DNA from: Pseudobdellovibrionaceae bacterium
GTDB lineage: Bacteria; Bdellovibrionota; Bdellovibrionia; Bdellovibrionales; Bdellovibrionaceae
Direction: 5' to 3'
Length of the DNA: 64,000 nt
Assembly (NCBI GenBank): GCA_013359135.1
Contig: JABWCN010000016.1
Span: 1-64,000 of the forward strand
In this document: positions 2,695-52,497 of the stretch, piece by piece
Layout: each line of letters starts with the position of its first letter
How positions within the stretch are numbered: the first letter of the stretch is position 1
Made by a program: the position numbers and the translations under genes
The notes under the pieces: model-generated
What the model was told of the DNA's origin: nothing
Databases searched by the model: none
What the model saw: the letters and a program-made list of their open reading frames with translations, nothing else

Positions 2695-3712
2695 GAAAGT
2701 TTTTAATAATCTTCACGTTTTAATTTTATTGGACTTTATTTTATACACAAAAATAAGTTACGCACAAAGTGAGATTAATTCTGATAAAATTCTGATCGCA
2801 ATCATCGATACTGGAGTTGATTTGAAAAACCCAGAGCTCACCCCCTTCTTATGGATAAATCCAGGCGAAACAGGAACTGACAAAAATGGCAATGACAAAG
2901 CCTCCAACGGAGTTGATGACGATAATAATGGTTATATCGATGATCTTCATGGCTGGAACTTTGTCGCCAACAATAGTAATATTCAAGACTTTCAAAGCCA
3001 TGGAACTCATGTTTTATCTACTATACTAAATAACCTCAAACACCTAGGACTTGAAAACAAAATTCAATTTCAAATCTTAAAGTACTATCATACAGATAAT
3101 GACACCCATTCATTGATACATGCTTCAAATGAGGCTTTTAGATATGCACTTCAGTTTCAACCCCAACTGATTAATTATTCTGGGGGAGGCTATAGTTTTT
3201 CAAAGACAGAACAACAACTTTTATCACAATTCTCACCCTTAAGAACTTTAATTATTGCGGCCTCTGGCAACGATCACAATAACAACGACATACTCCCTTT
3301 CTATCCTGCAAGTTACCAATTGGACAATGTAATTGCAGTTGCTTCTGTTAGCACATCGTCAAAGAAAAACAAAACAAAGCCATCTTCTTTTTCAAACTTT
3401 GGAAAAAGAACTGTTGCTGTTTTTAGCGAAGGGGAAAATCAATGGGCATTTGGTTTGAATCAAAAAAAAATTCCCCTAAGTGGAACATCACAATCTACAG
3501 CCAATTTAACATCCTTTGCTGCCAGTATTTTAATAGAGGACTCTTCTTTGAATCCCCTTGATATCAAAGATTTTCTTTGTTCTCACTTTGAGCCCCTAAG
3601 CAGTGACATCAAACCCACCTACTGCAACAGGGTCATCACCATCGATTCTTTAAAAAAAATTAAAGGTAAGAGTAATATATTTACAGAAATAGTCTCATCA
3701 CCGAAAATTTAG
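2672..3712 (+). CDS. Exported subtilisin-like S8 serine protease
   Basis: The start at 2672 is chosen over an in-frame ATG at 2642 because GGAGG lies just before it; this gives 346 residues. The N-terminus is a signal peptide cut near SYAQS. The catalytic triad is visible: Asp in AIIDTGVDLKNPEL, His in SHGTHVLSTI and Ser in SGTSQSTANL. The oxyanion Asn is in AASGNDHNN. An acidic NGVDDDNNGYIDD segment after the Asp motif looks like the calcium-binding insert seen in many bacterial S8 enzymes. No long propeptide is visible. It overlaps the RHS-like gene, so the two probably form one transcript. Confidence 0.9.
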   Translation: MTTIQLFRKVFNNLHVLILLDFILYTKISYAQSEINSDKILIAIIDTGVDLKNPELTPFLWINPGETGTDKNGNDKASNGVDDDNNGYIDDLHGWNFVANNSNIQDFQSHGTHVLSTILNNLKHLGLENKIQFQILKYYHTDNDTHSLIHASNEAFRYALQFQPQLINYSGGGYSFSKTEQQLLSQFSPLRTLIIAASGNDHNNNDILPFYPASYQLDNVIAVASVSTSSKKNKTKPSSFSNFGKRTVAVFSEGENQWAFGLNQKKIPLSGTSQSTANLTSFAASILIEDSSLNPLDIKDFLCSHFEPLSSDIKPTYCNRVITIDSLKKIKGKSNIFTEIVSSPKI

Positions 3713-3776
3713 ACTCACAAATCTATGGGAAAAAAACAGAAAACTAAGCCTAAATTTATTTCCCTGCAAAGAATAA

Positions 3777-3810
3777 AAAAGGAGATTTGCTACTCAGCAA
3801 ATCTCCTTTT
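3777..3810. terminator. Bidirectional rho-independent terminator
   Basis: A perfect 11-bp stem, GGAGATTTGCT with AGCAAATCTCC around loop ACTC, is flanked by A-run and T-run. It lies between the converging S8 protease and fadE genes and can serve both. Confidence 0.9.
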
Positions 3811-3845
3811 AAGAAGTCTTCAACTTTTAAGAATAGAGCTATATT

Positions 3846-6314
3846 TTAATTAAAAACATTCACATCCATTAATTTGGGATTATACTCCTTTTTCCCTTTG
3901 TATTCCTCTTCATCAAAATCATCTACTAGAATCACATCATAACGAATTGAATCGGATTCTTTAATTAACTTTAACTCTTCATCTGAAATCACATTTTTAG
4001 CACGAGCTTCTTCTAAGATTTCGAATACTTTCTTCTTAGGTAACACTTTTTCTCTGATAGCTTTTTTAATTTTCTTTTCAGCACTATCAGCCTTCAATGA
4101 AACTCTAAAGGCATTTTCCAAGCGAGCCAATTGTTGTGTCATATCCTTAGGAATATGAATACCGCCAGTTAGTCTTCTTCTGAATTCAGAGTCTTCCATG
4201 ATATCAGCAGAGATATGGTGAGACCAGCCATCGCTTGCTTGACTACCTACAGAGTTAATTCTAGACCAAGCGCCAATCCAACCTTTTATAAACCACCTTA
4301 AGCCAGGAATTTTAAGATTATCAAAAAGACCATCAAAAGACTCCTGAATTTTAGCTAAACAATATTTTAAGTTATAATGAACCACAGATAAATCTTCTTC
4401 TTTTCTACCCTCAGCTTCAAAACGCCTTAAGATACAAGTCATAATGTACATATATGCTAAAATATCTGCGAATCTTCCAGTGATTTTTTCACGTAACTTT
4501 AAAGCTCCACCTAAAGAACCCATAGCTACATCAGCTAAAATAGCAAAACTTGCAGAGATCCACTGCATTCTACGGAAATAAACTCTCATTTCAGAATGAC
4601 AATCAGGTGCTCCTGCCAAATAACCTCGAGTCAATGAAAGCACAACACTTCTGCAAAGATTCCTGACCACATGACCAATATGGCCCCAAAAAGCAGTGTC
4701 AAATCCCATCAAATCACCGGCTTCAAGAGTTTTTACCTCGTTATAAGCAAATGGATGTGCCCTCAAAGCACCCTGACCAAAAACAATCAACGTTCGAGTT
4801 AAAATATTTGCCCCCTCAACCGTAATACCAATAGGTGTGGCAACATAAATTTCACCAATTAAATTTCTTGGGCCTAAAGAAATTCCAGAGCCACCCATAA
4901 TATCCATACCGTCATTAATAACCTGACGCCCCATCTCTGTTGAATAATATTTCTGCATGGCTGTAATCACTGGCGGCTTAATACCTTTATCAAGAGCACC
5001 GACGGTAAACTTTCTCATCGCTTCTAAAGCATAGGTTTTTGCAGTGATACGTGCTAATGGCTCCTCAATGCCTTCAAATTTTCCAATACTTACTCCAAAT
5101 TGTCTTCGTACCACGGAATGAGCAGAAACCACTCGTGCAACTAACTTAGAACCACCCGTTGCTTGTGCAGGCAAGCTGATACCTCGACCAGCTGCCAAGC
5201 ACTCCATCAACATCTTCCAACCTAGTCCACAACCTGATTCACCACCAACAACAGCATCAATTCCAACAACAACATCGTGCCCCTGGGTTGGACAATTATG
5301 AAAAGGAATTGAGAGTGGATCATGACGACGTCCAATCACAACCCCAGGAGTATTCGACGGAATTAAAGCACAAGTAATTCCTAAATCCTCACCCCTACCT
5401 AATAGGTTTTCAGGATCACGTAATTTAAAAGCTAGTCCTATCACCGTTGAAATCGAGGCTAAGGTGATCCAACGCTTATTCCAGTTCAATTTAATTTTTA
5501 ATTTGCCATTTTGATCTTTAAAAAGAATACCACTCGAAGTTATTCCACCAGCATCGGACCCAGCTAAAGGCTCGGTAAGTCCAAAACAAGGCATATCAAG
5601 TCCAGAGGCAAGTCTCGGAAGATAATGGTTTTTTTGTTCTTCTGATCCGTAGTGAATCAACAACTCAGCAGGTCCCAAAGAGTTAGGCACCATAACCGAG
5701 ATCGTTGCCGTTAAAGAACGTGAAGACAATTTCATTATGACTTCAGAGTGACATAGTGCCGAAAATCCTAGACCACCGTACTCTTTAGGAATGATCATCC
5801 CTAAAAACTTTTCTTTTTTAATAAAATCCCAAACTTCTTTAGGCATTTCTTTATCGCGCCACACTTTCCACGGTTGAAGCATTTTACAAAGTTGCTCAAC
5901 AGGACCATCAATAAAAGCTTGTTCTTCTGCAGTTAATTGAGGGTATGGTTCCTTCATAATACTTTCGAAATTTGGTTTTCCAGAAAATAAATCTTTTTCA
6001 ACCCAAACTACGCCAGCATCTAAGGCCGTTCTTTCTGTTTCTGAAATTTTAGGAATAAATTCAAACTTCTTGAATAAAGCTACCACCATGGCAGTTATAG
6101 AGTGAGCTCGCAAAGGCTTCACTATAAAAACCAACAGCACAACGCCAACGAAGACTAAAGACCACAAAGGCAGACCTAGTCCAACCATATAAATGATAAT
6201 TGCAATTGCCCACAAGACCAAAGGGGCGCCCACATACCCCAGCATAAGAGCCGCCACAATTCCCACAAGCACACTCCAGCCGGTTAATGACTGTAAAAAG
6301 CCAAACATTTCCAT
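3846..6314 (-). CDS. fadE: Acyl-CoA dehydrogenase of the long FadE type
   Basis: At 822 residues this matches the long FadE enzymes (about 814 residues in E. coli) and not the usual 380-residue acyl-CoA dehydrogenases. Residues about 10-75 form two or three membrane segments. The acyl-CoA dehydrogenase domain follows, with signatures FGLTEPLAGSDAGG (FAD/substrate region) and MDIMGGSGISLGPRNLIG. A C-terminal helical region (DUF1974-like) completes the family layout. It introduces the first double bond of fatty acyl-CoA in beta-oxidation at the inner membrane. A GGAAGG ribosome site precedes the start; a second ATG lies two codons in. It is monocistronic, with a terminator at each end region. 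FadD at 22.6 kb supplies its substrate. Confidence 0.95.
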   Translation of the reverse strand: MEMFGFLQSLTGWSVLVGIVAALMLGYVGAPLVLWAIAIIIYMVGLGLPLWSLVFVGVVLLVFIVKPLRAHSITAMVVALFKKFEFIPKISETERTALDAGVVWVEKDLFSGKPNFESIMKEPYPQLTAEEQAFIDGPVEQLCKMLQPWKVWRDKEMPKEVWDFIKKEKFLGMIIPKEYGGLGFSALCHSEVIMKLSSRSLTATISVMVPNSLGPAELLIHYGSEEQKNHYLPRLASGLDMPCFGLTEPLAGSDAGGITSSGILFKDQNGKLKIKLNWNKRWITLASISTVIGLAFKLRDPENLLGRGEDLGITCALIPSNTPGVVIGRRHDPLSIPFHNCPTQGHDVVVGIDAVVGGESGCGLGWKMLMECLAAGRGISLPAQATGGSKLVARVVSAHSVVRRQFGVSIGKFEGIEEPLARITAKTYALEAMRKFTVGALDKGIKPPVITAMQKYYSTEMGRQVINDGMDIMGGSGISLGPRNLIGEIYVATPIGITVEGANILTRTLIVFGQGALRAHPFAYNEVKTLEAGDLMGFDTAFWGHIGHVVRNLCRSVVLSLTRGYLAGAPDCHSEMRVYFRRMQWISASFAILADVAMGSLGGALKLREKITGRFADILAYMYIMTCILRRFEAEGRKEEDLSVVHYNLKYCLAKIQESFDGLFDNLKIPGLRWFIKGWIGAWSRINSVGSQASDGWSHHISADIMEDSEFRRRLTGGIHIPKDMTQQLARLENAFRVSLKADSAEKKIKKAIREKVLPKKKVFEILEEARAKNVISDEELKLIKESDSIRYDVILVDDFDEEEYKGKKEYNPKLMDVNVFN

Positions 6315-6408
6315 AAAGAATCCTTCCTTTATTTTGATTACCCTTTTATTAGAACGCTAAATCAAAACTCAGGCAAGTTGGAAATAAAAAGAAAGTTTTA
6401 AGCAAAAA

Positions 6409-6433
6409 AAAAGGAGTTCAAAGAACTCCTTTT
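6409..6433 (-). terminator. Rho-independent terminator of the small lipoprotein gene
   Basis: An 11-bp perfect stem, AAAAGGAGTTC with GAACTCCTTTT around loop AAA, lies 25 bases downstream of the stop of the 84-residue lipoprotein gene (leftward). The T-run reads correctly for the minus strand. Confidence 0.85.
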
Positions 6434-6457
6434 AAAACTCAATCTAAAACTATGCTA

Positions 6458-6712
6458 TTACTTAGTTTCAGGTTGCGCAGGCTGAGCCGCAGCAGGTTGC
6501 TCAGTAGCACCAGCAGCAGGAGCAGCGGTACCAGCAGCAGCACCTTCAGCGCCAGCAGCAGGTTGAGCCATTTGCTCTTGAGAAGGTTGAGCAGCAGGTT
6601 GTTCTGTAGCAGCAGGAGCTTCAGTTTTAGCAGCTTCTGGAGTGTTTTTTGAACAAGTAAAGCCTGTTGTAAAAGATAATGCTATCAATGCAGCAGCAAC
6701 TAATAATTTCAT
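6458..6712 (-). CDS. Small Ala/Pro/Gln-rich lipoprotein
   Basis: The 84-residue product has a signal peptide ending in a lipobox-like GFTC. After the acylated Cys the sequence is almost wholly Ala, Pro, Gln, Glu and Gly, with repeated APAA, EQPAA and AAGA units, so it should be unstructured. Start and stop are supported by an AAGGA ribosome site and a strong terminator, which argues for a real, expressed gene. Short disordered lipoproteins of this kind can act as envelope spacers, but I assign no function. Confidence 0.7.
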   Translation of the reverse strand: MKLLVAAALIALSFTTGFTCSKNTPEAAKTEAPAATEQPAAQPSQEQMAQPAAGAEGAAAGTAAPAAGATEQPAAAQPAQPETK

Positions 6713-8607: not shown

Positions 8608-9006
8608 TTATTTATTAGAACATAGTTGAACATTTGAAATTCTTTGTAATTTGCCCTCTGTTACATATGAAACCAATAGGCACTGTTCCTCTTGTTTATT
8701 GCCTAAAATCACTTTAGCTATTGAGTTTTGTGCGTCGATAGACTCAATTCTTAAAGCCACTTCCCAAGATTGTAATAAGTCTTGTGATAAGACTATTGCG
8801 TCGCTATCCGAAGCAGCTACACGCTTCTTCCATTCTTTATTGAACTTTTTGGTAAGGCACTTTTTTCGAATTTTTACTAAATCTGATTCTTCGCCACCTT
8901 TACTCATAGTATTGACATATTCACTATAACAAGATTTTATAGTCTTACTTGTGTCAGCATGTGCATGCAGCAAAAACCCTAAAGATAAAATTGAAAGAAT
9001 ACGCAT
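8608..9006 (-). CDS. Small exported protein of unknown function
   Basis: The 132-residue product has a signal peptide cut near HAHAD. The mature part of about 115 residues has four Cys (SCYSEYVN, RKKCLTKKF, EEQCLLVS, VQLCSNK), fitting two disulfides. The alpha-then-beta layout recalls DUF3828/NTF2-like small periplasmic proteins, but that is only a resemblance. A GGAG ribosome site precedes the ATG. It lies upstream of the integrase pseudogene on the same strand and may be cargo of that former element. Confidence 0.6.
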   Translation of the reverse strand: MRILSILSLGFLLHAHADTSKTIKSCYSEYVNTMSKGGEESDLVKIRKKCLTKKFNKEWKKRVAASDSDAIVLSQDLLQSWEVALRIESIDAQNSIAKVILGNKQEEQCLLVSYVTEGKLQRISNVQLCSNK

Positions 9007-17483: not shown

Positions 17484-18702
17484 TTGTTTCTATTTCTTAG
17501 ATATACTAATAATTTTGCTTCTTTTTCAATCTATAGATGCAACACCAACAACCCAAATGGCCAAAATAAAATCTTATTCTTTACAACAAGTAAAAAACGA
17601 CCTTAACCCTTTTACAACTGACTGTTTAAACCTCTTAAGACCTGGCAATCTTTATTTTGATAACGTCGAACTAATCAATCAACCTTCAAATGACCTATTC
17701 ATGTTGCGAGTAAATGGAAAACTAGATTCCTCTTCTCGATTAAAATTTATAAGTAACAAAATATATTATATAGATCTAAATGACTTTGAGAGTGAAAAAA
17801 AGTTTGATTTTTCACAACTAGAAATTCCACGTTCAGAAAAGGGAGATTTTAGTTTTTCCATACCTGTCAATAAAGGAAAAATAAAGATCCCATTAACACT
17901 CATAAGAAGTGTAAGCGAATCTTTCGAACTGATTGTTGAAATTGATCAAGAAGGAAAACTAATTGCAGCTAATTTAAAGCCAGTTCCAAGTCTTAAGCTC
18001 AAATTACAAATGTGCCTAAGAAACAGAATCGAATTTTCCAATCTACTTGGCGTTACAGACTACAGTCAAAATATCACTCAGCCAGAAATCAGTATTAGCT
18101 CGTTTAATACGCAAACGATAAATAGGAAATTATCTTATCATCAAACACTTTCACAGACTCAATATCATTTCTTTAGTTTTTCTTCAAAAAATAGTGAACT
18201 CCTTAAAAATAACTATTATTACAACAGCTATAGTCACTCTTCTTTAACTTTTAATTTTTTAAGAAAAACATTTTCCCCCAAATGGAGTCGTGGGTTTCTG
18301 GGGCTTGCAATTTATCCTTATTGGTTTTATGGATTAGGCATTACTCAACACAGTAAAGCTTCTTTTGTAAAAACAGATACGATTGAAAACACCACAAAAC
18401 AGGCTCTTATTCCTACTTTTGGTATCGAGTTCATAACCCTTGATAAAAGTGGCTGGGCTTTAGAAAACAGGTTTTTGTTGAGTTATCCCTATTATTTTAA
18501 CACTAATGACAAAGGTGGTCCCTCTTTATCTTTTGCTAATAGTATTAATAGAAGCCTAAATCAAAAATTTTATATTGGGTTTAGGCTTGATATAGACTAC
18601 AACCAGTTATCTTATGCCAACAACACTTCCTACATTGATAAATCTGGCAATCTTCGAATTATCGAGATAACCACTGGACTGAATTTTGGTTATTGGCTTT
18701 AG
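17470..18702 (+). CDS. Exported, probably outer-membrane protein of unknown function
   Basis: GTG at 17470 follows a GAGG ribosome site and overlaps the end of the FecR gene by 14 bases. The 410-residue product has a signal peptide cut near SIDATP. From about residue 200 on it shows alternating aromatic strands (FLGLAIYPYWFYGLGI, NRFLLSYPYYFNTNDKGG, FYIGFRLDIDYNQLSY), as in outer-membrane beta-barrels. The mature N-terminal 180 residues look like a soluble domain. It ends the phosphatase/FecR operon, and its 3' end overlaps the converging S41 peptidase gene by 44 bases. Confidence 0.65.
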   Translation: MKKNNCFYFLDILIILLLFQSIDATPTTQMAKIKSYSLQQVKNDLNPFTTDCLNLLRPGNLYFDNVELINQPSNDLFMLRVNGKLDSSSRLKFISNKIYYIDLNDFESEKKFDFSQLEIPRSEKGDFSFSIPVNKGKIKIPLTLIRSVSESFELIVEIDQEGKLIAANLKPVPSLKLKLQMCLRNRIEFSNLLGVTDYSQNITQPEISISSFNTQTINRKLSYHQTLSQTQYHFFSFSSKNSELLKNNYYYNSYSHSSLTFNFLRKTFSPKWSRGFLGLAIYPYWFYGLGITQHSKASFVKTDTIENTTKQALIPTFGIEFITLDKSGWALENRFLLSYPYYFNTNDKGGPSLSFANSINRSLNQKFYIGFRLDIDYNQLSYANNTSYIDKSGNLRIIEITTGLNFGYWL

Positions 18703-20731
18703 ACATATCATCAGAAATTAACTTATACAGCTGTTTTAGAACTCCTTGAAACCCATTAATATAATCATCGGGAGTTACTTTCAAAACGACATCAGCTTCG
18801 ACTCCAACATTTTCTACGAAGGTTCTTACTGGATCATTCTTAGCTTGTCTTAAAGGTCTATACATCAAACTAGTTGTCAAAGACACCTTCCCCATCTCAG
18901 ACAGCTCAAAGGTTTCAACTGTTCCTCCGGCACCAGCCGTCTGTTTAGCTCCAACCCCAACAATCTTGACTCTTCCCTGATCTTGAAGTCCAGCAGGAGT
19001 GGCATCTCCACCAGAAAAATCTTTTTCATTAACTAAAAAATAAATTGGCTTTTCTTTGGGATAAGGCTGATCTTTAAAAAGTGCAGCACTCCCTATGGAT
19101 GCTAATGTGGAAAAAAGAAGATTATCACTATGAATCAAACTAAAATCCGAAATCATCTGCATGGCTTCATTTAGCGAAGCTAATTTAATACCTTCTGAAA
19201 TTGAAAATGGATCACCAGTGTTTGTGGCAGCTAAAATACGTTCATTATTTAATTTTAAATCGGCAAGAACCTGATCGAACTTTTCGCTACCTATAATGAG
19301 TCTAAATACAACCTCATTTTTAACAAAATTTTCAATAGCTTTTGCATTTTCATGATACTTTTGTTGTAAGTTTTTTGTTGGTCTGAATAAAAATTGCATT
19401 TGGTTTTCTGACTTTATCTCTGGAACAAGATTTCTGATCAATGCATCTGAATAACTAACAAAACCTCCAGGATTATTCATTTGATCTATAATTAGTAAAT
19501 CTGTTTTAGCGCCTAACACTGACATAACATATCTTAAACTATATATAATTGTTTGAGGATTACTAGGCGAGTAACTGGGCACTCTTAGAAAACCCACATT
19601 CATTACTTTACCGTTAATCTCTTTTTTAAATATATATGCCTTCAAATGCTTTCTATTAAATGGATCACTGCTATCAATGTCTTTATTTTTTTGAAGCTTT
19701 ATTCTTTCTTCATAGAGTTTAATGGATTCATTTTGGGGAAACTCAATTTCCACCGCGTCTTTGGGAAGCCGGAATAGAGTCTCTGCATCTCCGAGAGCTA
19801 TCTTACGCCCCTCTCCCTTTCCAATAGACTCAGCTATGCGATCTTCTCTAAAAGGTCTTTCACCGTCTTTAGGTTTTTGTCTTTCTGAACCTTTAACCGT
19901 CAATGGCTTATCTTTTTGACCGCCGCTAGAAATTAAACTCATATCTCTACTAAGCATCGGCGTTCCTTTCTCTTTATAAGGAACTAGAATCGTGTATTCT
20001 TTCTGAGTACGTTTATCTCTTAAGGTAAGCCTTAATCCATTAGGATTCATATTCAACAAAGGCAAACCACTAGTTTCAGACATCGAAACAATTCTTTGAA
20101 CAAATAAACTTTTATTAGTATGCTCATTTCCTTCTGCATTGACCGGAGGGAATCGACTGATAAACTCATCTACTGTCACGTTTTCAATTTTAATAACTTG
20201 ATCCAAAAGTTTAGGTTTTCTAATTTTCTCAACAGGGTATTCCGCAGAAATCCAGTTCACGTAATACTTTCCATTAATGTAAGTCATTTGAATAGGAAGC
20301 TCTCTGGCGTAATCTGAATTTAATCTCAAACTTACATGAGGGTCATTTAATCTTGAAAAAAACTCCACCATCAACACTCCAAACTCTCTGTCTTGAAGTG
20401 GGTTTAATTTAGAAATCTTAGCAACAAACTCCTCTTGCAGCTTATCAATTCCGTTAATAAATCCAAGCGCTTGCTTGTACTCTAAAGGACCATAAACAGC
20501 CTTAAGAAGCCTTACGGCTGAACTGAGGGTTTCGATCCTAGATTTCAAAATATGAGGATTTAAAGTCTCTAAAGTCTCTCTGATTTCTTTCAATGGAGTC
20601 ACTTTTTTAGGGATATAAACTTTAGGGTGAGTTACGGTTTGAGATTTAGATCCATACATAAAAAGACAACTATTGTCGGCCATAGTCATTGTTGTCGACA
20701 GTAAGACACTTCCAATCAGAATAAACTTCAT
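18659..20731 (-). CDS. Exported S41-family (C-terminal processing type) peptidase
   Basis: The 690-residue protein starts with a signal peptide cut near TMADN, after an AGAGGGA ribosome site. The S41 fold is suggested by VGFLRVPSYSPSNP, LLIIDQMNNPGGFVSYSDAL and the likely catalytic region VNEKDFSGGDATPAGLQDQG, where Ser of FSGGD is the expected nucleophile. A glycine-rich GVGAKQTAGAGGTVE follows, as in this family. An N-terminal helical domain and a basic insert near residue 270 are extra. It is likely an extracytoplasmic protease. Residues 22-26 (C-x-x-M-Y) match the N-terminal Cys-aromatic motif of the 47.7-52.5 kb exported enzymes. Confidence 0.85.
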   Translation of the reverse strand: MKFILIGSVLLSTTMTMADNSCLFMYGSKSQTVTHPKVYIPKKVTPLKEIRETLETLNPHILKSRIETLSSAVRLLKAVYGPLEYKQALGFINGIDKLQEEFVAKISKLNPLQDREFGVLMVEFFSRLNDPHVSLRLNSDYARELPIQMTYINGKYYVNWISAEYPVEKIRKPKLLDQVIKIENVTVDEFISRFPPVNAEGNEHTNKSLFVQRIVSMSETSGLPLLNMNPNGLRLTLRDKRTQKEYTILVPYKEKGTPMLSRDMSLISSGGQKDKPLTVKGSERQKPKDGERPFREDRIAESIGKGEGRKIALGDAETLFRLPKDAVEIEFPQNESIKLYEERIKLQKNKDIDSSDPFNRKHLKAYIFKKEINGKVMNVGFLRVPSYSPSNPQTIIYSLRYVMSVLGAKTDLLIIDQMNNPGGFVSYSDALIRNLVPEIKSENQMQFLFRPTKNLQQKYHENAKAIENFVKNEVVFRLIIGSEKFDQVLADLKLNNERILAATNTGDPFSISEGIKLASLNEAMQMISDFSLIHSDNLLFSTLASIGSAALFKDQPYPKEKPIYFLVNEKDFSGGDATPAGLQDQGRVKIVGVGAKQTAGAGGTVETFELSEMGKVSLTTSLMYRPLRQAKNDPVRTFVENVGVEADVVLKVTPDDYINGFQGVLKQLYKLISDDMSKANNQNSVQWLSR

Positions 20732-43547: not shown

Positions 43548-44285
43548 TTATAAATACTCCAACTCAAAAACCATTGGGAAATGATCAGAGCCATTAACAT
43601 TGTCCAAAATTTCAGCTTTTACCACCTTGAAACCCCTAAAAAATAAATGATCTAGTTTTAGAACTCTAGAATCATTTTCAAAATGATGATGAGTGATATT
43701 GTATTTTTCTAATAACTGCAAAAGCTGATGCCAACGAGTCAAACTCCAGGTGTTAAAATCCCCTGCAAAAATGATCGGACCATGATGATGGGTGATCCTA
43801 TCTACCAAATCTTCCATAAATAGTTTAAATCGAGAGGTCGTTGTAAAATTAACGACATGAGTGTTGACCAGCAAAGTGTTTTTTAACTTAAGATCAGCTA
43901 TCAAGCTCACCTTGGGAGTCCAAAATAACAACTCTTTCTCTGATCCTCGAACTAAAGTGTACTCTTTGACAGCTAACTTACTCCCTAGAGCAACCCCTGT
44001 TTCTATATGATTATGACGGTACTTAAAGCTTTTACCAAAAGCCCAAGAAACGCCATCTAACAAGGAAAAAAATTGATTCATTGAGGCTTCTGAAGTCATC
44101 TCTTGCAAAAAAAAGAGATCACAATCAGTAAAGTTTTCTAAAAAATCTTTTTTGAAAGAAGGTTTCTTAAATTTATAAACATTCCAAACAAGAATTTTGA
44201 TCTTGTTTGGAACCTCTGTAGTCTTTGGAGACTGACCGAAAAACTCTAACTCAGAACTAGGATGAGGAACCTTAAAAAAAACCAA
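43548..44285 (-). CDS. Endonuclease/exonuclease/phosphatase (EEP) family protein
   Basis: The 245-residue protein has the EEP motifs in order: KILVWNVYK, LFFLQEM with the metal-binding Glu, VNTHVVNF, FAGDFNTW, and LDHLFFRG with GSDHFPMV at the end. Family members cut DNA, RNA, sphingomyelin or inositol phosphates; the substrate is unknown, though it is closest in layout to YafD-like proteins. The start is TTG at 44285, just after the stop of the endonuclease I gene, and no signal peptide is seen. It may be translationally coupled to that gene. Confidence 0.85.
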   Translation of the reverse strand: MVFFKVPHPSSELEFFGQSPKTTEVPNKIKILVWNVYKFKKPSFKKDFLENFTDCDLFFLQEMTSEASMNQFFSLLDGVSWAFGKSFKYRHNHIETGVALGSKLAVKEYTLVRGSEKELLFWTPKVSLIADLKLKNTLLVNTHVVNFTTTSRFKLFMEDLVDRITHHHGPIIFAGDFNTWSLTRWHQLLQLLEKYNITHHHFENDSRVLKLDHLFFRGFKVVKAEILDNVNGSDHFPMVFELEYL

Positions 44286-44287
44286 CT

Positions 44288-45187
44288 TTAGAAATCACTA
44301 ATCAACTCGGCAAGCTCTGGATAATCAATGAATGGATTACGGTTGCCTTGAATTTTATAAATTTCTTCATTACGAGTAATCTCTTCTTGATCTACAGGAT
44401 ATTGCGCATTCCACTTTTTCAAGTAGGCTTCTTCCTCGGGGTCAATGGGTAGATCATATCTAACTGAAAAGTAAAAAATAGCCCTTGCTACACGGCCTTT
44501 GTGAACCTGTGGAGGCTCGAAAACATCTCTACCAGAACTAGAACTCTTACCATACTTAGATTGTTGGCATTTCAAAGGAACTGTATTTGTAGAAACATCA
44601 CCAAAATTTTTATTACCTCTGATTGCATTCAACTGAGAGTCAGTAGGGTACAAATGATGTAAATCTGATTTTTGAAAGTCTTTATTAAATTTACCGCTAA
44701 AACGCGACTGCGGCCAAGTATGCTCAACATTAATCACAGTGTTATCAGGGATAGTTTGAGGGGCTGGACCTTTTTTGCCTCGAAACTCCTCTTTGCCGTA
44801 ATATTTATTACAGTAGGCCTCTTTAATAACAAATTGATTATCTTGTTTTACTAAGTACAAATACCCCATTAAAAAAATTCTAGCGCGATCATATCCAAGG
44901 CTGATTTGTGTATAACAAGACGGAGTTCTGCTATCGCATCTTTCCGTAAGATCATCTAACTGACCTGGTTTTTGAATATGGTAACTTCTTAATATGCTTT
45001 TTAAAACATACTTCAGATTTTCATCTTTAGAATTAATCCTAAGTGCCGCATATAAGTTCTGCGAATAATAGGGAATAACCTGAGTGGATGGAGTTCGGAA
45101 TGGGTTTCTCGCCTGGAAGGCAAAAACCTGGGTACTTGCTAGTAAAATAATAACAAGTGAATTGCTAATAAGTTGGATCAATTTCAT
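44288..45187 (-). CDS. Exported endonuclease I (EndA/NucM type)
   Basis: The start at 45187 is chosen because GGGAGCG precedes it and the signal peptide (cut near VFAFQA) begins there; the frame is open 93 bases further. The 299-residue precursor has the endonuclease I motif VEHTWPQSRF with KSDLHHLYPTDSQLNAIRGN, which binds magnesium in a beta-beta-alpha fold. Such enzymes degrade DNA in the periplasm or outside the cell. An EEP gene follows at once. Confidence 0.93.
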   Translation of the reverse strand: MKLIQLISNSLVIILLASTQVFAFQARNPFRTPSTQVIPYYSQNLYAALRINSKDENLKYVLKSILRSYHIQKPGQLDDLTERCDSRTPSCYTQISLGYDRARIFLMGYLYLVKQDNQFVIKEAYCNKYYGKEEFRGKKGPAPQTIPDNTVINVEHTWPQSRFSGKFNKDFQKSDLHHLYPTDSQLNAIRGNKNFGDVSTNTVPLKCQQSKYGKSSSSGRDVFEPPQVHKGRVARAIFYFSVRYDLPIDPEEEAYLKKWNAQYPVDQEEITRNEEIYKIQGNRNPFIDYPELAELISDF

Positions 45188-45383
45188 CTTCGCTCCCGTA
45201 GTAAAGCATTTAGGTGCCTCGTAGAAACGCCAAACCTTGAAAAAATTAATCGATGAAACAACTTCTAAGCCTAACACCAAGAAATTTTATCTATTATTGG
45301 CATATACTGGTTAATGTTTAACAAAAAGTAATTATAGCTTGTAAAAAATTCAACAAAATTCATTTCAAGATTTGATTTTGAAA

Positions 45384-47709: not shown

Positions 47710-48810
47710 ATGAAGTCAAATATGAATATAAAAAAAAGAATATTTTCTAACTTATTGTTGGGGTTGTTTTTAGCAATAAGCACCCCACATATTGGTAATT
47801 CCTCCTCTTTAAAGGGCTGTGGCCTGTTCTATAGTTCCTTCCCAAATTTTTTCTTTTCCTTAAATCCAAATATACCGATCTCAAGAACACTAGCGGCTAT
47901 GATCGATAGAAGTGAAACAAATCCTCTCTATAACCCAGTTCTTTTTCAAGAAATTCTAAACTCCAAACTTCCGGGTTTTGATAGCGGATTCAATAGAGAA
48001 CAGCATATTCCTAAGGAACTTAAGCAATTAGCATTCGGTCCCCACCAAGCCATGCAAAAAAAATCTTGGATAAAGTTTATTAATAGCATCTCAGATCATG
48101 TATTTTCTGAGGCTTATTGGCCAAGCATTCTTAAAAAATCATTAAAAGATGTACATACAATGGGCATGCATAGCTTAGTTATATGGGAATCTCCACAACT
48201 GATGGTTCGACTTTTTGTTGTACCACCGGCTGATCATCCTTCTGCAACGAAAACAGAATTTATTCGCGATGGAGAGCCTTTACGTTACGATCCTCACTTG
48301 GACACAATGGACTCACGATTTTTATATCATCGACATCGCTTTCACTTAGCATCTCTTACTTTGGCTGGACAAGTTAATAATATAAGACTTCAAGTAACAC
48401 CTGATTCTCAAGGCAATTATTCAAGTTATCAATTTACTTCTGCATTGTTAAATTCTAAAGGAGTTCCCGGGTTAAAGAAATTATCCCAAAAGGTGAATAT
48501 GCTAGCTAGTGAAGCAGAAGTTGTATTACCCCAAAACTTTTACTTTATGCACGCTTGGGAGATCCACAGAGTAGCGTTTATTCCGGAAGGACATAACCGC
48601 TCAGGATGGTTTGCGGCATTGTTACTTGAGGGACCTGACCTAAATAAAGATTTAGCTCCTCAACCTACTGTTTTTGATCACTCATCAAACGATATGGCGT
48701 ATACAAATGGAGTACCAAATGCTGAAAAATTATATAAACCATTTGAAGAAAATGAGCTTCGAAATTTATTAAATGATCTATTTACTCACCTGAAAGAAAA
48801 TGAGTTATGA
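47710..48810 (+). CDS. Exported cupin-type protein
   Basis: The 366-residue precursor has a basic start (an alternative ATG is at 47722) and a signal peptide to about residue 30. After it comes C37-G-L-F-Y-S. A double-stranded beta-helix (cupin) domain is indicated by YHRHRFHLASLTLAG (H207, H209) and a second motif WEIHRVAF (H286) followed by WFAALLLEGP. This is the pattern of cysteine-dioxygenase-like metal cupins (HxH ... HR ... GP). The first 190 residues are unassigned. It overlaps the next gene by ATGA, and both share this cupin. The likely role is a metal-dependent oxygenase or isomerase outside the cytoplasm; that is inferred. Confidence 0.6.
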   Translation: MKSNMNIKKRIFSNLLLGLFLAISTPHIGNSSSLKGCGLFYSSFPNFFFSLNPNIPISRTLAAMIDRSETNPLYNPVLFQEILNSKLPGFDSGFNREQHIPKELKQLAFGPHQAMQKKSWIKFINSISDHVFSEAYWPSILKKSLKDVHTMGMHSLVIWESPQLMVRLFVVPPADHPSATKTEFIRDGEPLRYDPHLDTMDSRFLYHRHRFHLASLTLAGQVNNIRLQVTPDSQGNYSSYQFTSALLNSKGVPGLKKLSQKVNMLASEAEVVLPQNFYFMHAWEIHRVAFIPEGHNRSGWFAALLLEGPDLNKDLAPQPTVFDHSSNDMAYTNGVPNAEKLYKPFEENELRNLLNDLFTHLKENEL

Positions 48811-50840
48811 AAAAAATTTCAAAAACACTTATTTTTACGATCGTTTTATGCAACGTTTACACTTATGCTAACCAAATCTGCATAACATTTTACTCCAACA
48901 GAGGAAATTCACGAGGCCATGACGTTGCTACTAAAGTAAGACAAGTAGAATCTTATGCAAATTGGATGGATGCAAGTCTTAACGAGAAAGCCTCTCTATT
49001 TATTAACCATCTTAAAAATAAGATCAAACCCGGCTTGCGCCTAGTAGATTTAGGTGCCGGTACAGGAAATTTAGGCAGATACTTTGCGGTTAATTTTCCC
49101 GATATTACAGTAACCTCAGTAGAACTATCTCCCGACCTTATTAAAATTGGAAAGGCTCAACAAGGCAATCAAAAAATACCAAACTACTTGATGGAACACG
49201 GAGATATCACTGGGTCTTATTTGGAAAACAAAAAGGAAAAGTCAGATATTATCCTAATGAATTCCGTTTTGCATGAAGTATCTTCTTTTTATCATATTAA
49301 TCCCGAAATACCAGAAAATGCTACAGCACAGAGACTTGGTGAAATACGCAGGCTATTAAAGCGAATTAATCAAAATTTGAATCCATCTGGCAGTTTGATA
49401 TTTCGTGATTTTGTGAGACCTACTAATGCAGACCGAAAAGTAATTCTTAAACATTTGAAATCCGATCAAAAAGAAGGTTTTAAATTTTCTGATTTTGCAA
49501 ATCAATTTGGTTTCTTCAAAGTTCCAATAAAAATTTTAACAGAGCCTAATCAAGACCCCGCATACATTTATTACGAAACGTCACTGCATTCCGTATTTGA
49601 ATATATTTTTCGTAAAGATCATGGATTTGACTGGAAGGCCGAACTTAATGAAAACTATGGTTTTTGGGACGAGAAAGAAATGCGAACCTTACTAAGCGAA
49701 GAAGGCTTTCGCGTGACTACTATTGAAAATCAAGACCCTTCCTGGTTTATTAATAACTTTGTAAAAAACAAAATTGAGGTACTCGAGGCTGATAAAACAA
49801 CAGTTATTGCTCCACATGAGTACGTAAGAAAAGTAATAGTTAACGCAGAGAAAAGCGCTATTTCAGAAGTACGTGATGTAATCAATGAGCATATCCGACG
49901 TCAAGGAGATCTAAAAGAATCATCCTATACTTTTTTCCAGAACGTAATTAGCTCGCAAAATGCTATTCGCATCATTAAAGAAATTTTATCATCTGATGAT
50001 CTCCTGACTGCCGTAGCCAAACGAGCTATAAGACACCCCCTAGGATTTACGAAATTTATTTTAGATAACAACTGGAGTGATAGATTCAAAGGAGTTCCAG
50101 AATGGGATCTGCGCTTACACGTTTGGGACAGTTCACCAGGTATGTCTGATTTTTTAAGTGTAGAAAATGTTTTAGAAAGCTTACACGCACACCGCTGGAA
50201 TTTTATTTCAACAGTGTTAACTGGTTCTATTGAAAATCACAAATTCTTATTTAGACAACCAACTGAAAATGAAATGAAACTTTATGAAAGAATTATAGCA
50301 AAAGTTCCACATGCCAATCAAAAAACACTTGAAGAAGCTTGTGGAATTGAAGAACTACTTCAAATTAGAGGATCTTCGCTCATTCCAGAAACTGTTGATA
50401 TGACTACTTTAATACAACGTAGAAAACAACTACTAGAAACTCTAAATATTTCAGAAAGTGAACTTAAGTTTCTATCAAGTATTTTTGAAAAATATGAAAA
50501 TTGGTTAGATACCACCAATAATTCTCCCAAGGAAAGCTATCGTCTGGCTGGATATCTAATTGCTGATGCTGAGTTGTCAGATGGAACAAATAATGTTACT
50601 ATACATAAATCAAATTCAACATATTTCCATGGTAGATCAAGCGCTCATCGTTTAGCCGTTGACCCAAGAGTTCACACTGCTACATTTCTTCTTGTAGGTC
50701 CTTCAAAACAAGAACCTGGTGTATTAAGAAGACCTTTTGCTTCCCATGGCAACCAAGAGATTCAAAGAAGCTTCATGACAGTGGATCAAGCACGTGAAAC
50801 TCTTAAAAAACTGTTAATAAGTCTATCTCCGAACGACTGA
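48807..50840 (+). CDS. Exported SAM methyltransferase fused to a cupin domain
   Basis: The start overlaps the cupin gene (ATGA). The 677-residue precursor has a signal peptide to about residue 21 (TYAN), then C25-I-T-F-Y-S. Residues about 55-210 are a class I methyltransferase: motif I LVDLGAGTGNLG (79-90), VTSVELSPD and SDIILMNSVLHEVSS. Residues 210-430 are unassigned and mostly helical. Residues about 432-635 form a cupin like the previous gene's, with LHAHRWNFISTVLTG (H460, H462) and SAHRLAVD (H614) then TATFLLVGP. SAM is a cytoplasmic cofactor, so an exported methyltransferase is odd; it may act in a host or prey cell, or the N-terminus may be a membrane anchor. Confidence 0.7.
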   Translation: MKKISKTLIFTIVLCNVYTYANQICITFYSNRGNSRGHDVATKVRQVESYANWMDASLNEKASLFINHLKNKIKPGLRLVDLGAGTGNLGRYFAVNFPDITVTSVELSPDLIKIGKAQQGNQKIPNYLMEHGDITGSYLENKKEKSDIILMNSVLHEVSSFYHINPEIPENATAQRLGEIRRLLKRINQNLNPSGSLIFRDFVRPTNADRKVILKHLKSDQKEGFKFSDFANQFGFFKVPIKILTEPNQDPAYIYYETSLHSVFEYIFRKDHGFDWKAELNENYGFWDEKEMRTLLSEEGFRVTTIENQDPSWFINNFVKNKIEVLEADKTTVIAPHEYVRKVIVNAEKSAISEVRDVINEHIRRQGDLKESSYTFFQNVISSQNAIRIIKEILSSDDLLTAVAKRAIRHPLGFTKFILDNNWSDRFKGVPEWDLRLHVWDSSPGMSDFLSVENVLESLHAHRWNFISTVLTGSIENHKFLFRQPTENEMKLYERIIAKVPHANQKTLEEACGIEELLQIRGSSLIPETVDMTTLIQRRKQLLETLNISESELKFLSSIFEKYENWLDTTNNSPKESYRLAGYLIADAELSDGTNNVTIHKSNSTYFHGRSSAHRLAVDPRVHTATFLLVGPSKQEPGVLRRPFASHGNQEIQRSFMTVDQARETLKKLLISLSPND

Positions 50841-51019
50841 TTAAGTTTTAAGTTCAATTTTAGTTCATTAAAAATTCGTTTTTAAACTCAAATCAATGAA
50901 ACCTAGATTAGATATTTTTTTACACTATTACTTTTTTCAAAAATTGATACCGTTCTATATGTTGTGGGATTTTAACAGTTGTCTTTTACCCAGTGAGGGA
51001 AATCAAAAAAAGTTGTTCT

Positions 51020-51075
51020 GTCAAACATTTTGACGGTGACCGTCAGCGACTCATGTCGAGACTGTTTAGACAGTC
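51020..51075. repeat. Run of four adjacent inverted repeats
   Basis: In order: GTCAAA-cat-TTTGAC (51020-51034), TGACGGT-g-ACCGTCA (51031-51045), CGAC-tcat-GTCG (51047-51058) and GACTGT-ttag-ACAGTC (51060-51075). A further ACTGTC follows at 51080-51085. The first two overlap and compete. It could be a regulatory RNA leader, a multi-site operator or a mobile-element end. Confidence 0.5.
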
Positions 51076-51105
51076 ATTTACTGTCTACTCAAATTTAAAT
51101 TGATT

Positions 51106-51210
51106 CTATTCTGGAATGAATACTGCTTTGTTTTTTCCTGTAACGTCTGATTCTGTTGGGTGAGGTAAAATTACTCTCTCAATGTTTGGAACGGCATCGA
51201 GAACTCTATT
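51106..51210 (-). pseudogene. Antisense remnant of a lost gene's 3' end
   Basis: On the minus strand 34 codons read NRVLDAVPNIERVILPHPTE and on to AVFIPE before a TAG, with coding-like composition. The frame runs back only into the start of the aminotransferase gene, where it meets a stop. It looks like the tail of a gene cut away when the aminotransferase was inserted. No family was recognised. Confidence 0.4.
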
Positions 51211-51213
51211 AGC

Positions 51214-52497
51214 ATGAATACAAAAAAGAAACTTTTTCTATTTTTAATTTTTATCATAGTAAGTCCGGCAATGTACGGGGCTGAATCTTGCTCAAAGTAC
51301 TATCTCTCGATAGAAAGAGATTTTATCCGTGATTGGGGTGTTCAACTTTTAAAAAGCAATGATAAGACTTTCAATGATCTAGATTATAAAAGAAGACTTT
51401 TAGAGATGAGACCAGGAAGTGTCCCTTATGCTGGATGGATTCCTGGCATTAACTTTGAGTTTATGAAAATATTCCGAGAGTTTCAGAAATATATTGCAAA
51501 TACCGATTTTGCTTACATGCCTTCAGTTCTACGATTTACAAATACAGGAACAGATGCTAACAATGCTATTTATGAACTTGCGGAATATGCTTTTTTCAAA
51601 AGAACAGGAAAACAAGCTAAACGGCCAAATTTAATGTATTTCGGTGACCCCTACGGAGGAACATATGGACGAGTTGCAGAAATTGGAGTTCGCTATGAAA
51701 CTAACCTCAAAATAAAAAAACAATTTCAAGTTCCAACTCCCTATACAGACTCTTTAGAAAATCATTCGAAAGATGAAACTAAAAGACTTGAAAAAATTGA
51801 AAATAAGGCTCTTGAATTTATTCGAAAACAATCTGCAAAAACATCTTTAGAAATTGGAGGGATTTTTCTTGAACCAATAACGACCACCAAAGGGCTCCGT
51901 TTTTTTAGGAAAGAATTTCTTATTAAACTACGCGAGTTAGCTGATGAGTTGAATTTACCTATTATTGCTGATGAAATTTTCACTGGAGGTGGTCGTACCG
52001 GCACATTTTGGGGTTTTCAAAATTATGGAGATTTCAGACCCGACCTAGTCACTTTTGGAAAAGGGATTGGCGTTTCTGGGATTATTGAGTATACGAGAAG
52101 CGTAGTTATAAATGATAGAATTGTTTCGCGATGGAATTGGCCATCATTCGAGAACACAACTGGTGAGAGTAAAAAATACCCTGAGGCAGTTTTTGATAAC
52201 ACTTCCAGAGTCAATCCATTGCAGTTACTTCAATCACTTCAAATTTTAAAACGTATTGTTAATGATGATTTACCACTCAACGCCAAAGAGGTGGGCGCTT
52301 ATGCTTTAGAAAGGATGAAATATAAGTTAAAGTCACTTGGCATTAATGATCAAATTAAAGGTGTTGGATTACTATTTGATGTTGGTGATAAAACAGACGC
52401 TCTAGTTGGTAAAAATGGAGTGAGTCATTACAATGGACGATGGTCACCACCATTAACAATGACAAAAGAAGAATTTAATGTTCTTTTGGATAAATAA
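51214..52497 (+). CDS. Exported class III PLP aminotransferase
   Basis: The 427-residue precursor has a hydrophobic signal segment to about residue 23 (YGAES), then C26-S-K-Y-Y. The rest is a fold-type I class III aminotransferase like glutamate-1-semialdehyde aminomutase: FTNTGTDANNAIY, FLEPITTTKG, the PLP Asp in IIADEIFTGGGRTGTF (D253) and the Schiff-base Lys in VTFGKGIG (K283). The end, GRWSPPLTMTKEEF, fits the family, so it is complete. These enzymes are cytoplasmic, so a signal peptide is exceptional. No ribosome site is clear before ATG. It is 373 bases after the methyltransferase-cupin gene. Confidence 0.85.
   Translation: MNTKKKLFLFLIFIIVSPAMYGAESCSKYYLSIERDFIRDWGVQLLKSNDKTFNDLDYKRRLLEMRPGSVPYAGWIPGINFEFMKIFREFQKYIANTDFAYMPSVLRFTNTGTDANNAIYELAEYAFFKRTGKQAKRPNLMYFGDPYGGTYGRVAEIGVRYETNLKIKKQFQVPTPYTDSLENHSKDETKRLEKIENKALEFIRKQSAKTSLEIGGIFLEPITTTKGLRFFRKEFLIKLRELADELNLPIIADEIFTGGGRTGTFWGFQNYGDFRPDLVTFGKGIGVSGIIEYTRSVVINDRIVSRWNWPSFENTTGESKKYPEAVFDNTSRVNPLQLLQSLQILKRIVNDDLPLNAKEVGAYALERMKYKLKSLGINDQIKGVGLLFDVGDKTDALVGKNGVSHYNGRWSPPLTMTKEEFNVLLDK

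What the first reader, a model, noticed from the sequence alone, without database searches (positions are those of the whole stretch)
47710..52497. Cluster of exported SAM, cupin and PLP enzymes
Three neighbouring genes encode a cupin, a methyltransferase-cupin fusion and a class III aminotransferase. These reaction types often occur together in small-molecule biosynthesis. All three begin with signal peptides, although SAM and PLP are cytoplasmic cofactors. An exported set of such enzymes could act in a prey or host cell, or in the periplasm with imported cofactors. I know of no described system with this make-up.
Basis: partly seen in the sequence, partly recalled or inferred. Interest (0 to 1): 0.78.

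Follow-up and report, generated by a model that had tools for sequence, protein, structure and literature searches.

The report
Exported enzymes sharing an N-terminal cysteine tag
Three neighbouring genes in a Bdellovibrio relative encode proteins with export signals, two of them a methyltransferase and an aminotransferase, and all three begin, just after the signal, with the same five-residue cysteine tag that marks many unrelated exported proteins of this genome, which suggests a sorting label not previously described.

Summary
The three ORFs are real and begin with Sec-type signal peptides (SPs). B is a SAM methyltransferase plus an unassigned C-terminal region; C is a class-III aminotransferase with PLP lysine and aspartate intact. 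The cupin labels for A and B are not supported. The SPs are genuine for B and C, because distant orthologues keep them; A has no orthologue. They are not a conserved pathway: homologues of B and C occur elsewhere, on separate contigs. What A, B and C share is an N-terminal tag near the likely cleavage site: a cysteine, often the only one, with Tyr at +4 (C-x-x-x-Y). In 1.06 Mb of this genome 21 putatively exported proteins carry it, with no similarity among them; they include a MoxR AAA+ ATPase, its vWA partner and peptidases. Y at +4 of such cysteines is enriched even without the window (16/109 vs 38/821, p=2e-4). Orthologues in other genera keep the Cys but use Phe (C-x-x-L-F) or Leu, and partner subunits within a genome switch together. 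Best reading: an undescribed post-signal-peptide sorting tag, read by lineage-specific machinery, on secreted proteins that include ATP- and SAM-dependent ones. Delivery into prey or host is plausible but unproven.

The parts
47710..48810 (+). Gene A: SP + tag + 325 aa of unknown family (cupin-like by eye only)
   Evidence: ORF; no profile or PDB match; no relative in 369 genomes of the phylum except gene B's own C-terminus in the model
47818..47832 (+). Tag of A, CGLFY; its Cys is the only one in the protein
   Evidence: sequence
48807..50840 (+). Gene B: SP + tag + SAM methyltransferase + C-terminal region of unknown family
   Evidence: SP-bearing methyltransferase homologues in G067 and G367
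48879..48893 (+). Tag of B, CITFY
   Evidence: sequence
48984..49511 (+). SAM methyltransferase domain of B; motif I VDLGAGTGNL kept in homologues as VDVGTGTG[NR]L
51214..52497 (+). Gene C: SP + tag + class-III aminotransferase
51289..51303 (+). Tag of C, CSKYY; C26 is an invariant column in nine family members
52060..52062 (+). Codon of K283, the expected PLP lysine (FGKG), invariant in nine family members together with D253
18659..20731 (-). Another tagged exported gene in the window: S41 peptidase, 690 aa
20654..20668 (-). Tag of the S41 peptidase, CLFMY; the only Cys in the protein

Best explanation
A, B and C belong to a class of exported proteins defined by a Sec signal peptide followed, within about eight residues of the likely cleavage site, by a short tag: a cysteine, often the only one in the mature protein, then hydrophobic residues around +3/+4. 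The +4 residue is Tyr in this genus, Phe in several related genera, and Leu or Val in others. Shown by computation: the tag, its position, its use on proteins that share no similarity, the scarcity of other Cys in them, its conservation in orthologues and its lineage-specific +4 residue. Inferred: after SPase I cleavage the cysteine and the residue at i+4, one face of a short helix, are recognised by a dedicated and co-evolving component, which sorts the proteins to the surface or out of the cell. Because tagged members include an AAA+ MoxR ATPase and a SAM methyltransferase with intact cofactor motifs, I think the likeliest final site is one that supplies ATP and SAM, i.e. the cytosol of a prey or host cell, where B and C would modify small molecules or proteins. 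That last step is inference only.
For: Tag position and count: 21 SP-bearing proteins with C-x-x-x-Y in 27% of the genome; Y at +4 in 21/105 N-terminal non-lipobox Cys vs 42/921 elsewhere, p 2e-7. Hold-out without the window: 16/109 vs 38/821, p 2e-4, and best of 140 residue/offset tests. No lipobox in 21 of 21; other Cys 0.15% vs 0.94%. No similarity among the tagged proteins of this genome. Orthologues: MoxR 82% identical in G031 with RCEDFY changed to RCEDLF, and the vWA partner likewise; methyltransferase, aminotransferase, alpha/beta hydrolase and an ART-like protein all change from Tyr to Phe in G067; C26 invariant in nine aminotransferase homologues. Enzyme sites intact in B and C; MoxR Walker A/B-like motifs GEPGGAKT and ADEAEK present. 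Sec-dependent secretion to medium and bdelloplast is established in B. bacteriovorus (PMC12622784).
Against: SP calls are heuristic. The enrichment is not significant, or only weakly so, in each other genome sampled (G067 p 0.006 for C-x-x-[LIVM]-F; G001, G010, G138 none). Not every relative keeps the tag: a MoxR homologue in G069 (CSSSA), an S41 homologue in G015 and the aminotransferase relative L081 lack it. Several tagged proteins are ordinary hydrolases or peptidases that need no cytosolic cofactor. PLP enzymes can be active in a periplasm (PMC6034422). No reader of the tag and no delivery step were identified.
Confidence: 0.55

Rival explanations
1. The tag is an anchoring or retention device: the cysteine is acylated or disulfide-linked to an envelope partner, so the proteins stay in the periplasm or on the cell's own surface, and B and C act there on leaked or imported cofactor.
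For: A lone exported Cys is unusual, since untagged exported proteins here mostly have 0, 2 or 4 Cys; C-family members in four other genomes are apparent lipoproteins, i.e. membrane-anchored; a PLP racemase is active in the P. putida periplasm (PMC6034422); many tagged proteins are hydrolases.
Against: No lipobox at the tag Cys in 21 of 21; ATP and SAM are not known to be supplied in the periplasm (general knowledge), yet MoxR and B keep their motifs.
Confidence: 0.28
2. A, B and C form an exported small-molecule pathway, with the tag incidental.
For: Adjacency, A/B overlap of 4 nt, same direction.
Against: Homologues of B and C are unlinked in G067 and occur alone elsewhere; no A elsewhere; the cupin identity is unconfirmed; the tag is shared with unrelated proteins.
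Confidence: 0.06
3. The tag is a chance pattern or a composition effect of mature N-termini, and the three proteins merely happen to have signal peptides.
For: The motif is short, was first seen in A, B and C themselves, and SP calls are heuristic; single other genomes give weak or no significance.
Against: Hold-out enrichment without the window, p 2e-4; conservation in orthologues across genera with a parallel change in partner proteins; scarcity of other Cys.
Confidence: 0.08

Closest known systems
L-lysine epsilon-aminotransferase / acetylornithine aminotransferase (class-III, PF00202)
   Same: Gene C aligns over the second half with PLP lysine, aspartate and the R-x-x-P-P-L segment
   Different: C and its family have a signal peptide or lipoprotein start and lack the usual N-terminal segment; far below every NCBIfam equivalog cut-off
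MoxR-vWA-beta-propeller ternary conflict systems (PMC7159879; Pfam bpMoxR)
   Same: A tagged MoxR/vWA pair in this genome, and a third tagged gene in G019, match this make-up
   Different: Here the components carry signal peptides and the Cys tag; the 2020 paper does not mention secretion or Bdellovibrio
Bacterial lipoprotein signal (lipobox)
   Same: A functional-looking cysteine close to the signal peptide
   Different: Cys lies some residues after an SPase-I-like site; none of 21 fits [LVI][ASTVI][GAS]C
C-terminal sorting tags such as LPXTG, PEP-CTERM or the T9SS domain (from general knowledge)
   Same: A short module shared by unrelated exported proteins
   Different: This one is N-terminal, directly after the signal peptide, and its reader is unknown
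Periplasmic PLP racemases (Alr of P. putida, PMC6034422)
   Same: A PLP enzyme exported with a signal peptide and active outside the cytosol
   Different: Racemase, not the class-III aminotransferase family; no Cys tag described there

Membership tests
Class-III aminotransferase (C) | Family profile match | tested here: met
   PF00202 106 bits, cut-off 30.5
Class-III aminotransferase (C) | PLP lysine and pyridine-binding aspartate | tested here: met
   K283 and D253 invariant in nine members
Class-III aminotransferase (C) | Aminotransferase activity | not testable with these tools
   needs purified protein
Class-I SAM methyltransferase (B, N-terminal half) | Family profile match and motif I | tested here: met
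   Methyltransf_23 43.7 bits, cut-off 27; VDLGAGTGNL kept in homologues
Cupin (A and C-terminus of B) | Profile match to a cupin family | tested here: not met
   none at E up to 1 in Pfam or NCBIfam
Cupin (A and C-terminus of B) | Double-stranded beta-helix fold | tested here: inconclusive
   AlphaFold2 pLDDT 32-33
Bacterial lipoproteins | Lipobox ending at the tag cysteine | tested here: not met
   0 of 21
Small-molecule biosynthesis cluster | Conserved linkage of the enzymes | tested here: not met
   B and C homologues unlinked in G067 or alone; A absent elsewhere
Effectors delivered into prey or host | Found or active in the target cell | not testable with these tools
   needs localisation experiments

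The most novel reading that the evidence does not exclude
A dedicated export or delivery pathway in Bdellovibrionota recognises a mature N-terminal tag (Cys plus a lineage-specific aromatic or aliphatic residue at +4) and carries a large set of otherwise unrelated proteins, by extrapolation some 75 in this genome, including ATP-, SAM- and PLP-dependent enzymes, into the cytosol of a prey or host cell.
Probability: 0.3. Interest if true: 0.92.

Novelty: new variant of a known kind. Interest (0 to 1): 0.76.

Why it matters
If the tag is a sorting signal, it gives a simple sequence rule for picking out a secreted set of proteins in a poorly known lineage of predators and their relatives, and it makes a concrete question testable: what reads an N-terminal cysteine tag after the signal peptide. 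It would help explain why these bacteria export proteins of families that need ATP, SAM or PLP. The parallel change of the +4 residue in partner proteins points to a co-evolving reader that can be sought by comparing genomes.

Tried and rejected
Cupin assignment by Pfam, NCBIfam, PDB phmmer, a phylum-wide profile and two AlphaFold2 runs: nothing usable. Homology of A with the C-terminus of B: not significant. Biosynthetic-cluster reading: no conserved linkage. Lipoprotein reading of the tag Cys: no lipobox. The weak G038 hit to A (E 4e-4) lies in an unrelated ORF and was treated as chance. L005 and L009 are relatives without this N-terminus and were set aside. Promoter/terminator scan at chance level. 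A first, wider form of the motif (C-x-x-hydrophobic-hydrophobic) was less specific than C-x-x-x-Y. Literature searches for a cysteine sorting motif in Bdellovibrio or other predators found none, but most subscription journals are missing from the library. The ADP-ribosyltransferase-like reading of L049 rests on motifs seen by eye (YRAL, LSVS, ExE) shared with G067; no profile or PDB hit.

Full report
Observation. Three + strand ORFs exist where stated: A 47710-48810, B 48807-50840 and C 51214-52497. A and B overlap by 4 nt; C starts 374 nt later. Each begins with a Sec-type signal peptide by a hydrophobicity rule. The N-terminal half of B is a SAM methyltransferase. C is a class-III aminotransferase, closest among solved proteins to L-lysine epsilon-aminotransferase, acetylornithine aminotransferase and related racemases, with D253 and K283 invariant in nine family members. 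A and the C-terminal region of B have no profile match; their mutual similarity is at chance level, and AlphaFold2 without relatives gave no usable model. The cupin label stays open.

Are the signal peptides real? For B and C, as far as sequence can tell, yes. B-type methyltransferases with signal peptides occur in G067 (L004) and G367 (L218). C-type proteins with a signal peptide or a lipoprotein-like start occur in G067 and G021, in G150, G132, G138, G136, G234 and G151, and in a Myxococcales MAG (L081). The named loci place the family in Bdellovibrionales, Bacteriovorax, Halobacteriovorax and Bacteriovoracales.

A pathway? The three do not travel together. In G067 the homologues of B and C are on different contigs; elsewhere they occur alone; five genomes of the same genus have none of the three.

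The shared tag. Near the likely cleavage site A has CGLFY, B CITFY and C CSKYY, and an S41 peptidase of the same window has CLFMY. In 1.06 Mb of the genome (27%), 21 signal-peptide proteins without further membrane segments carry C-x-x-x-Y in this place. None has a lipobox there; 11 of the 21 have no other Cys after the tag; together they hold 0.15% further Cys against 0.94% in untagged exported proteins. Tyr at +4 follows such N-terminal Cys in 21 of 105 cases against 42 of 921 for Cys elsewhere (p 2e-7). One of the 21, a 132-aa protein with four Cys at 8608-9006, is probably a chance match. Because the motif was first seen in A, B and C, I repeated the test with the whole window left out: 16/109 vs 38/821, p 2e-4; among 140 residue/offset combinations Y at +4 ranks first (9e-5, the next is 0.015). 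The tagged proteins of this genome are not similar to each other at E 0.01. They include a MoxR AAA+ ATPase and its transglutaminase/vWA-type partner, S41 and S9 peptidases, an alpha/beta hydrolase, a weak match to C1 peptidases, an ADP-ribosyltransferase-like protein (by motif only) and several of unknown type.

Conservation and lineage rule. MoxR homologues in G031 (82% identical), G022, G019, G003 and G068 keep signal peptide and Cys, and so do neighbouring genes on the same loci in G031, G022, G019 and G003. The +4 residue is Tyr in the window's genus (G000, G003, and one protein in G001), Phe in G031, G022, G019, G021, G025 and G067, and Leu or Val in G068, G027, G234, G242 and G367. In G031 both MoxR and its partner read RCEDLF where the window's genome reads RCEDFY in both. 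Between G000 and G067 the methyltransferase, the aminotransferase, an alpha/beta hydrolase and the ADP-ribosyltransferase-like protein all change from Tyr to Phe. Counts in the two samples are 14 C-x-x-hydrophobic-Y and 0 C-x-x-[LIVM]-F in G000, against 0 and 5 in G067. My hand-made tally over homologous families gives Tyr in 8 of 8 same-genus members and 0 of 17 others; the members are related, so that p value is only indicative. A 400 kb sample of G010 has no such tag. Exceptions exist: the MoxR homologue of G069, the S41 homologue of G015 and the aminotransferase relative L081 show no such tag.

Mechanism. Shown by computation: the tag, its place, the scarcity of other Cys, its modular use and its lineage-specific +4 residue. 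Inferred: the Cys and the side chain at i+4 form one face of a short helix that is read, after SPase I cleavage, by a dedicated component. Which compartment follows is not shown. The MoxR nucleotide-binding motifs and the SAM and PLP sites of B and C suggest use where ATP, SAM and PLP are present, for instance another cell's cytosol. Against this, a PLP racemase is active in a periplasm (PMC6034422) and many tagged proteins are hydrolases. Sec-dependent secretion by B. bacteriovorus into medium and bdelloplast is established (PMC12622784).

Known systems. MoxR-vWA-propeller ternary conflict systems were described in 2020 (PMC7159879); a text search of that paper found no mention of secretion or of Bdellovibrio. 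I found no paper on a cysteine sorting motif in Bdellovibrionota, within a library that lacks most subscription journals.

Limits. Signal peptides were called by a simple rule; the count comes from part of one genome and smaller samples of others; significance in each other genome alone is weak or absent; no reader of the tag was found.

Noticed in passing
L034 (G000:C12) 2937-6640: The tagged MoxR ORF ends at 747 aa, whereas homologues in G031 and G022 run past 1200 aa; a transposase-like ORF follows at 5264-6640, so an insertion element probably interrupts the gene.
   Followed up: partly
L243 4539-5168 (G019): A third tagged gene (CEQVF) with propeller-like repeats next to tagged MoxR and vWA-type genes: a whole MoxR-vWA-propeller set that appears to be exported.
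   Followed up: partly
L049 1963-3504 and L258 (G067): Tagged proteins sharing YRAL, LSVS and ExE segments reminiscent of ADP-ribosyltransferases; no profile or PDB match.
   Followed up: partly
window 51102-51213, minus strand: Reads ...ANRVLDAVPNIERVILPHPTESDVTGKNKAVFIPE and a stop, perhaps the remnant of a decayed gene just upstream of C.
   Followed up: no
window 43548-45280, minus strand: Two neighbouring nuclease genes (EEP family; Endonuclease I with a signal peptide); an Endonuclease I gene also lies next to the C homologue in L012.
   Followed up: no
L013, L014, L015, L017: C-family proteins of other Bdellovibrionota look like lipoproteins with an extra Cys motif further on and N-terminal extensions of several hundred residues.
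   Followed up: partly
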